DNA from: Terriglobus roseus
GTDB lineage: Bacteria; Acidobacteriota; Terriglobia; Terriglobales; Acidobacteriaceae
Assembly (NCBI RefSeq): GCF_900102185.1
Contig: NZ_LT629690.1
Location: forward strand, 3,844,001-3,908,000
Direction: 5' to 3'
Length of the DNA: 64,000 nucleotides
Under the pieces are notes generated by a model. It was not told the origin of the DNA, did no database searches, and saw only the letters and a list, made by a program, of their open reading frames with translations. Made by a program: the position numbers and the translations under genes. The first letter of the stretch is position 1. Each line of letters starts with the position of its first letter. Shown here piece after piece: positions 29,504 to 30,047 of this stretch.

Positions 29504-29724
29504 CGGGAAACTTTCCTTTCAGGCGAGTGGCGCGGGGAGGCGCAGCAACATCATTATTTCATCTCTTCGAAGTTAGGCATCCCTTTACACGATCGAGCCA
29601 TCGTATCCCCCAAACGTGCTATCTACATACCACCTTAGTGGAATCACAGTTCGGTCTTAAATGCATGACCGTAAAGACATGAGAGGCAGCAAATGACGCT
29701 TCTCTAAGAATTGAGATTCTCCTA

Positions 29725-29823
29725 ATGCACGGTATTTTAGTGGCAGCTGTTTTTCTTGGAATGCTCATACTCCCCTGCCTGATCGCAATGCGTCACAGCG
29801 ACCGGGAACAGGAACTTAACTAG
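29725..29823 (+). CDS. Predicted 32-residue single-span membrane peptide A
   Basis: ATG to TAG, 32 codons. The product has a two-residue polar start, one hydrophobic stretch (residues 3-22, containing A7, L11, G12, P17, C18 and A21) and a charged tail (RHSDREQELN). It aligns without gaps to the peptide encoded at 29946: seven identities, hydrophobic residues matched through the span, and Pro-Cys at positions 17-18 in both. The ribosome site is weak (GAG about 10 nt upstream). I do not know a named family; it is not like KdpF or CydX. Membrane insertion and expression are inferred. Confidence 0.5.
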   Translation: MHGILVAAVFLGMLILPCLIAMRHSDREQELN

Positions 29824-29945
29824 CCTTATTCGCTCGCACGAACTGACTTTTCTATCCATCCGTTCAAACGGAACGGTATATCTGCGCAACCTCAACAAAT
29901 AAAGCTCCAGCCGAACGATTCGCCGAGAGAGCGGAGGCCGCCCCA

Positions 29946-30047
29946 ATGACCCTTCTTATACTTGCCAGCATGGCGCTAGGCGCCGTGGTATTTCCTTGTG
30001 TTGTCGCATTTGTCTGCATGCCGCAGGACGATGGCCGACACCTCTAA
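29946..30047 (+). CDS. Predicted 33-residue single-span membrane peptide B
   Basis: ATG to TAA, 33 codons, with GGAGG at 29933-29937, 8 nt before the ATG: a textbook ribosome site. It encodes a hydrophobic segment (about residues 3-24) with Pro17-Cys18 and a second Cys at 24, then a polar tail (PQDDGRHL). It is the evident paralogue of the peptide at 29725, in the same orientation 122 bp downstream. It points toward the end of the convergent glycosyltransferase gene. Function unknown. The strong ribosome site and paired conservation make it the better supported of the two. Confidence 0.6.
   Translation: MTLLILASMALGAVVFPCVVAFVCMPQDDGRHL

What the first reader, a model, noticed from the sequence alone, without database searches (positions are those of the whole stretch)
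29725..30047. Tandem paralogous 32/33-residue membrane peptides
Two plus-strand ORFs upstream of glyA align end to end without a gap: same length within one residue, one hydrophobic span, and identical M1, A7, L11, G12, P17, C18 and A21. The second has GGAGG at ideal distance. Independent random ORFs would not share Pro-Cys at the same positions. They are too short for standard gene callers, so they are probably unannotated. Possible roles: small regulators of a transporter or respiratory complex, or toxin-like peptides.
Basis: seen in the sequence. Interest (0 to 1): 0.75.

Follow-up and report, generated by a model that had tools for sequence, protein, structure and literature searches.

The report
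Acidobacterial multi-copy tiny membrane proteins
Two overlooked 32- and 33-residue membrane proteins beside glyA are real genes and belong to a family not found in the databases searched, present in 1-9 copies per genome in one soil-bacterium family, with many copies under the same unusual promoter, which points to a dedicated but unidentified regulator and function.

Summary
The two ORFs exist as described and are real genes. Both are under purifying selection (18 synonymous against 4 amino-acid-changing codons between two Terriglobus species; indels only outside the ORFs). They are paralogues, and they are two members of a much larger family. The family (consensus MHDLLIAxxFLxMxxxPCxVA + acidic tail, about 30 residues, one helix) has 1-9 copies per carrier genome. 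It was found only in Acidobacteriaceae (75 of 300 genomes; nothing outside that family in a 396-genome phylum sample) and matches no Pfam, NCBIfam, PHROG or PDB entry. Copies lie at unrelated intergenic sites (glyA, folC, thiC, asnS, tyrS, ccmC-aroF), sometimes in arrays. Many share a palindromic operator (ATnCCACnnnnGTGGnAT) repeated every 21-22 bp, a -10-like hexamer at a fixed distance (same peak in an independent set), and a leader that starts with a hairpin whose arms differ between copies. Conservation runs along one helix face. The best reading is an activator-induced small membrane protein that docks on a partner membrane protein, as E. coli AcrZ does. Partner and regulator are unknown. 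The main rival is a toxin-like membrane-active peptide. No transcription, translation or function was measured.

The parts
29584..29601 (.). Third, weakest operator-like site TTTACACGATCGAGCCAT
   Evidence: Palindromic PWM score 8.4; 21 bp upstream of the next site
29605..29622 (.). Distal operator site ATCCCCCAAACGTGCTAT
   Evidence: PWM score 15.6; 22 bp upstream of the proximal site; kept in G013 and G007
29627..29644 (.). Proximal operator site ATACCACCTTAGTGGAAT (near-perfect palindrome)
   Evidence: PWM score 19.5; with 29605 it is the best-scoring tandem pair in 1.6 Mb of contiguous own genome
29667..29677 (+). Inferred -10 region (GACCGT at the family's usual 31-nt offset from the operator centre, or TAAAGA 5 nt further on)
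   Evidence: Position inferred from the family geometry; GACCGT kept at the same offset in G013 and G016; GTA.A part also in G007. Weak match to the usual hexamer
29681..29704 (+). Leader hairpin GAGAGGC...GCTTCTC near the inferred mRNA 5' end
   Evidence: Predicted fold; hairpin at the same place with different arms at the orthologous sites in G007, G016, G004 and G011
29725..29823 (+). pepA: 32-aa single-helix membrane protein, family member
   Evidence: Family profile E 4.5e-14; selection; single helix, pLDDT 89
29860..29876 (+). Intercistronic hairpin CCGTTC-AAACG-GAACGG without a T run
   Evidence: Kept as CCCGTTC...GAACGGG in G007 with a different loop
29946..30047 (+). pepB: 33-aa paralogue with its own ribosome-binding site GGAGG (29933-29937) but no operator of its own
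   Evidence: Subfamily A2 found only in this genus; paralogy with A3 by hhalign

Best explanation
pepA and pepB are two members of an Acidobacteriaceae-specific family of about 30-residue single-helix membrane proteins. Shown by sequence: a coding family under purifying selection; most copies in intergenic units of their own; for many copies, tandem palindromic operators at 2-helical-turn steps, a fixed operator-to-hexamer distance, and a short leader with a hairpin near the inferred 5' end. Inferred: a dedicated activator binds at about -43 and switches the copies on together; the hairpin stabilises a short mRNA or serves another post-transcriptional step; pepB is made from the pepA transcript. 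The protein inserts N-out/C-in as one Pro-kinked helix whose conserved face (A7, F10, M13, P17, A21) packs against the membrane part of a larger protein or against itself. It would adjust that partner's activity or stability when induced, as AcrZ does with the pump AcrB. Partner, regulator and inducing condition are unknown.
For: pN 0.027-0.041 against pS 0.36 for pepA and pepB; dN/dS 0.05 for the thiC-site orthologues and 0.20 for the folC-site orthologues. Family census and restriction. Operator: 25 of 27 strong tandem pairs in 606 kb lie upstream of family members. The operator-to-hexamer offset of 31 nt occurs 37 times among 101 nonredundant members (next best offset 5) and 12 times in an independent set of 32 (next best 3). 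Leader hairpin of at least 6 bp in 54% of 41 members against 11% of shuffles. Conservation periodicity peaks at 100 degrees per residue, 0 of 5000 shuffles as strong. K/R almost absent before the helix, 1.35 per tail after it. AcrZ: N terminus in the periplasm, bend at residues 10-15, Pro16 needed for AcrB binding (PMC7267776).
Against: No convincing sequence match to AcrZ (hhalign probability 12%; no PDB or Pfam hit). No consistently linked partner gene. No transcript, translation or interaction data. Only about 40% of members show the full promoter geometry by the strict definition, and the window's own -10 hexamer is poor. One conserved helix face also fits self-assembly into a pore.
Confidence: 0.5

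Rival explanations
1. Toxin-like membrane-active peptides: self-assembling helices that depolarise or perturb the membrane when induced, comparable in form to TisB, Ldr, Ibs or ZorO, possibly with antisense RNA antitoxins.
For: Size, one hydrophobic helix, several copies per genome, tandem arrays with 400-520 bp spacing and stand-alone intergenic loci all resemble type I toxin loci; known type I toxins are small, hydrophobic and some are tandemly repeated (PMC8309996).
Against: Short leader (median 42 nt) with no more occlusion of the ribosome-binding site than shuffled leaders (mean 0.37 against 0.34 unpaired). No conserved region downstream of the ORF that could hold an antisense gene in ten Granulicella copies. 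No convincing Pfam or NCBIfam toxin-model match. Activator-type promoter and strong conservation of one helix face and of a His-Asp start.
Confidence: 0.22
2. Subunits or assembly factors of a respiratory or cytochrome c maturation complex, on the model of CcmD, CydX or KdpF.
For: In several genera two or more copies flank ccmE-ccmA-ybaK-ccmB-ccmC and aroF (CcmC and DAHP synthase confirmed by Pfam).
Against: Those copies mostly carry their own operators rather than sharing the ccm transcript; one genome has a separate CcmD-like ORF next to its peptide; in Terriglobus most copies are next to glyA, folC, asnS or tyrS and not in a ccm cluster; no CcmD, CydX or KdpF Pfam match.
Confidence: 0.13
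3. The conserved unit is the RNA (a regulatory RNA with hairpin), and the ORF is incidental.
For: Structured leader; intergenic stand-alone units.
Against: Third-position changes dominate, indels avoid the ORFs, and amino-acid identity is kept while the DNA diverges; no Rfam match.
Confidence: 0.02

Closest known systems
AcrZ of Escherichia coli (49 aa, AcrB-bound small protein)
   Same: Single helix; acidic residue 3, Leu4-Leu5, Phe10, Pro16 (here 17) and Ala20 (here 21) in the same order; N-out/C-in orientation (predicted here)
   Different: Only 12% hhalign probability; 28-36 aa instead of 49; several copies per genome; different promoter; partner unknown
Type I toxins (TisB, Ldr, Ibs, ZorO)
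   Same: Small hydrophobic single-helix peptides, multi-copy, tandem, intergenic
   Different: No sequestered ribosome-binding site beyond chance, no sign of a conserved antisense gene, no convincing toxin-model match, shared tandem operator and fixed promoter geometry
CcmD / CydX / KdpF (small subunits of membrane complexes)
   Same: One-helix small proteins; some copies sit in the ccm region in several genera
   Different: No sequence match; own promoters; most copies unlinked to such operons

Membership tests
AcrZ | Detectable sequence homology to AcrZ (Pfam, PDB chain or profile) | tested here: not met
   No AcrZ hit in Pfam at E<=5 for any of 61 members, none in PDB at E<=10, hhalign probability 12%
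AcrZ | Binding to the membrane domain of an RND pump | not testable with these tools
   Needs a pull-down or two-hybrid assay
Type I toxin-antitoxin | Small hydrophobic single-helix peptide | tested here: met
   19-residue hydropathy 2.8 for pepA; helix 3-31 predicted
Type I toxin-antitoxin | Antisense RNA antitoxin at the locus | tested here: inconclusive
   No conserved 3' region in ten Granulicella copies; a transcript map is needed
Type I toxin-antitoxin | Translation-repressive leader hiding the ribosome-binding site (found in many, not all, type I toxins) | tested here: not met
   Unpaired probability 0.37 against 0.34 for shuffled leaders
Type I toxin-antitoxin | Toxicity when overproduced | not testable with these tools
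   Needs an induction experiment
CcmD (heme exporter D) | Sequence match to the CcmD model | tested here: not met
   No CcmD hit among 61 members
CcmD (heme exporter D) | Gene in the ccm operon after ccmC | tested here: inconclusive
   Copies follow ccmC in genera g9 and g43 but mostly with their own operators; not so in Terriglobus or Granulicella
LexA-controlled peptide (TisB-like) | Same operator upstream of lexA | tested here: not met
   lexA upstream regions of relatives lack the motif
BlaI/MecI regulon | Operator upstream of the blaI genes | tested here: not met
   Three blaI-type genes of the genome lack tandem sites upstream

The most novel reading that the evidence does not exclude
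A dedicated regulon in Acidobacteriaceae consisting almost only of dispersed copies of one 30-residue membrane protein, all switched on together by one unidentified activator through helically phased operators, with mRNAs that begin with a hairpin. The copies would form a tunable dose of a membrane-complex modulator with no known counterpart.
Probability: 0.35. Interest if true: 0.8.

Novelty: new variant of a known kind. Interest (0 to 1): 0.62.

Why it matters
Tiny membrane proteins are usually found one at a time and in a few model bacteria. Here a lineage of common soil bacteria keeps many copies of one such protein, with a shared promoter signature that supports the family independently of the protein sequence. 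That makes the regulator, the inducing condition and the partner directly testable. Short-gene filters and single-sequence searches could easily miss it: Pfam, NCBIfam, PHROGs and PDB hold no match.

Tried and rejected
Rfam over the locus: no match. Pfam, NCBIfam, PHROGs and PDB for the family: only scattered weak hits to single members. AcrZ membership: not met. LexA control: lexA upstream regions carry a different element (TTCGCnTTTTATTCGC-like). BlaI/MecI control, considered because the operator resembles mec-type operators: the genome's three blaI-type genes lack it. Horizontal transfer to Rhodanobacteraceae: two MAG contigs labelled so carry the peptide next to XdhC-type genes (both contigs) and further genes shared with Granulicella L298, so misbinning is likelier. 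A first count of the hexamer offset was made at 30 nt by hand and corrected to 31 by the script.

Full report
Seven position-matched identities are not very rare for two hydrophobic ORFs (3.7% of random pairs), but the whole pair score is (0.04%).

They are genes. The gap is conserved in two close relatives at 94% and 80% DNA identity. Against G007 each ORF has 9 synonymous and 2 amino-acid-changing codons, and all indels fall outside the ORFs. This gives pN 0.041 and 0.027 against pS 0.36. The pair recurs beside glyA in G004, G011 and G016. In G003 and G010 the same gap holds a single pepB-like ORF.

They belong to a family. pepA-like ORFs recur throughout the genus, and a 61-sequence profile finds them in 75 of 300 genomes of the taxonomic family, in 13 of 79 genera, at 1 to 8 copies (up to 9 with the first, looser search). 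In a phylum-wide sample of 396 genomes all 26 positives are in that one family. A strict codon pattern scanned over about 85,000 genomes gave 59 stretches: records of Acidobacteria, including Terriglobus, Granulicella, Acidicapsa, Bryocella, Terracidiphilus and Edaphobacter, plus two contigs labelled Rhodanobacteraceae that look misbinned. The consensus is MHDLLIAxxFLxMxxxPCxVA followed by a short charged tail. P17 never varies in the profile set and F10 nearly never. Conservation along the helix peaks at 100 degrees per residue, matched by none of 5000 shuffles, so one face of a membrane helix is constrained: A7, F10, M13, P17, A21. The profiles of the pepA family and the pepB subfamily match each other. 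pepB-type proteins were found only in this genus.

Most copies are independent units. They lie divergent from glyA (Terriglobus and Granulicella), divergent from folC, facing thiC, near asnS or tyrS, beside uracil-DNA glycosylase genes, and around the ccm-aroF region in other genera (neighbours checked by Pfam). Arrays of two or three copies occur. No neighbour is shared by all.

Many share a promoter. Motif search in the upstream regions gave a ribosome-binding site and a palindrome, ATnCCACnnnnGTGGnAT, often in two or three copies at steps of 21-22, 43-44 or 65 bp. Of 27 strong tandem pairs in 606 kb, 25 lie upstream of family members. In 1.6 Mb of contiguous own genome the window's pair at 29605/29627 is the best. 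A hexamer [GC]ATN[CA]T starts 31 nt after the operator centre in 37 cases among 101 nonredundant members, while no other offset exceeds 5. In 32 further members not similar to the first set the same offset occurs 12 times, next best 3. If the hexamer is the -10 element, the operator centre is at about -43, the place of class II activators (established knowledge), which would explain the missing -35. The transcript would then start about 42 nt before the ORF with a hairpin: stems of at least 6 bp in 54% of 41 members against 11% of shuffles, with different arm sequences in different copies. At the glyA site itself the arms differ between the window, G007, G016, G004 and G011. In the window the hexamer is weak (GACCGT, or TAAAGA 5 nt further on), so its exact start is uncertain. 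pepB has no operator of its own and lies 122 nt behind pepA, with a conserved hairpin in between, so one transcript for both is the simplest reading.

What it does is inferred. The tails after the helix carry 1.35 K/R per protein and the start almost none, which predicts N-out/C-in; pepA alone is predicted as one helix. The order acidic-3, Leu4-Leu5, Phe10, Pro16/17, Ala20/21 is that of E. coli AcrZ (its sequence recalled from memory and aligned), in which the N terminus is periplasmic, the helix bends at residues 10-15 and Pro16 is needed to bind AcrB (PMC7267776). The sequence test does not make it an AcrZ, so this is a comparison of how it may work and not of membership. The type I toxin reading fits size, copy number and arrays, but the leader does not hide the ribosome-binding site more than chance, no conserved downstream region suggests an antisense gene and no toxin model matches convincingly. 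I put the partner-docking reading at 0.5 and the toxin-like reading at 0.22.

The regulator was not found: lexA and the three blaI-type genes lack the operator, and no other gene in the scanned 1.6 Mb has the full promoter.

Limits: no transcriptome or proteome was available; the PWM was derived from the same loci it was first counted on (the independent set addresses this for the offset); the promoter geometry is met strictly by about 40% of members; gene calls in relatives are from a simple codon model.

Noticed in passing
L132-L152, upstream of lexA: lexA start regions in Terriglobus and related families share an element like TTCGCnTTTTATTCGCTA, a candidate LexA box for Acidobacteria.
   Followed up: no
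L126:4879 (Granulicella rosea, G161:C3): The mscL gene there also has a tandem operator pair 44 bp apart; other mscL genes seen do not.
   Followed up: partly
G000:C1:3439289: Three weaker operator-like sites at 21-bp steps upstream of an ORF starting MPLFPIKTCVVCGEEFELKPDKPGFANR (zinc-ribbon-like).
   Followed up: no
L073 5097-5549 and L080 5184-5639: Long family variants of about 150 aa: the peptide followed by repeated PSRIR segments, the gene's 3' end meeting a convergent Hsp70-like gene.
   Followed up: no
L252 3635-3736 and 4604-4705 (G324): Two identical family genes 969 bp apart with identical operator sites, apparently a recent duplication or an assembly duplicate.
   Followed up: no
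L313, L321: MAG contigs labelled Rhodanobacteraceae carry genes in the arrangement seen in Granulicella L298, probably misbinned.
   Followed up: yes
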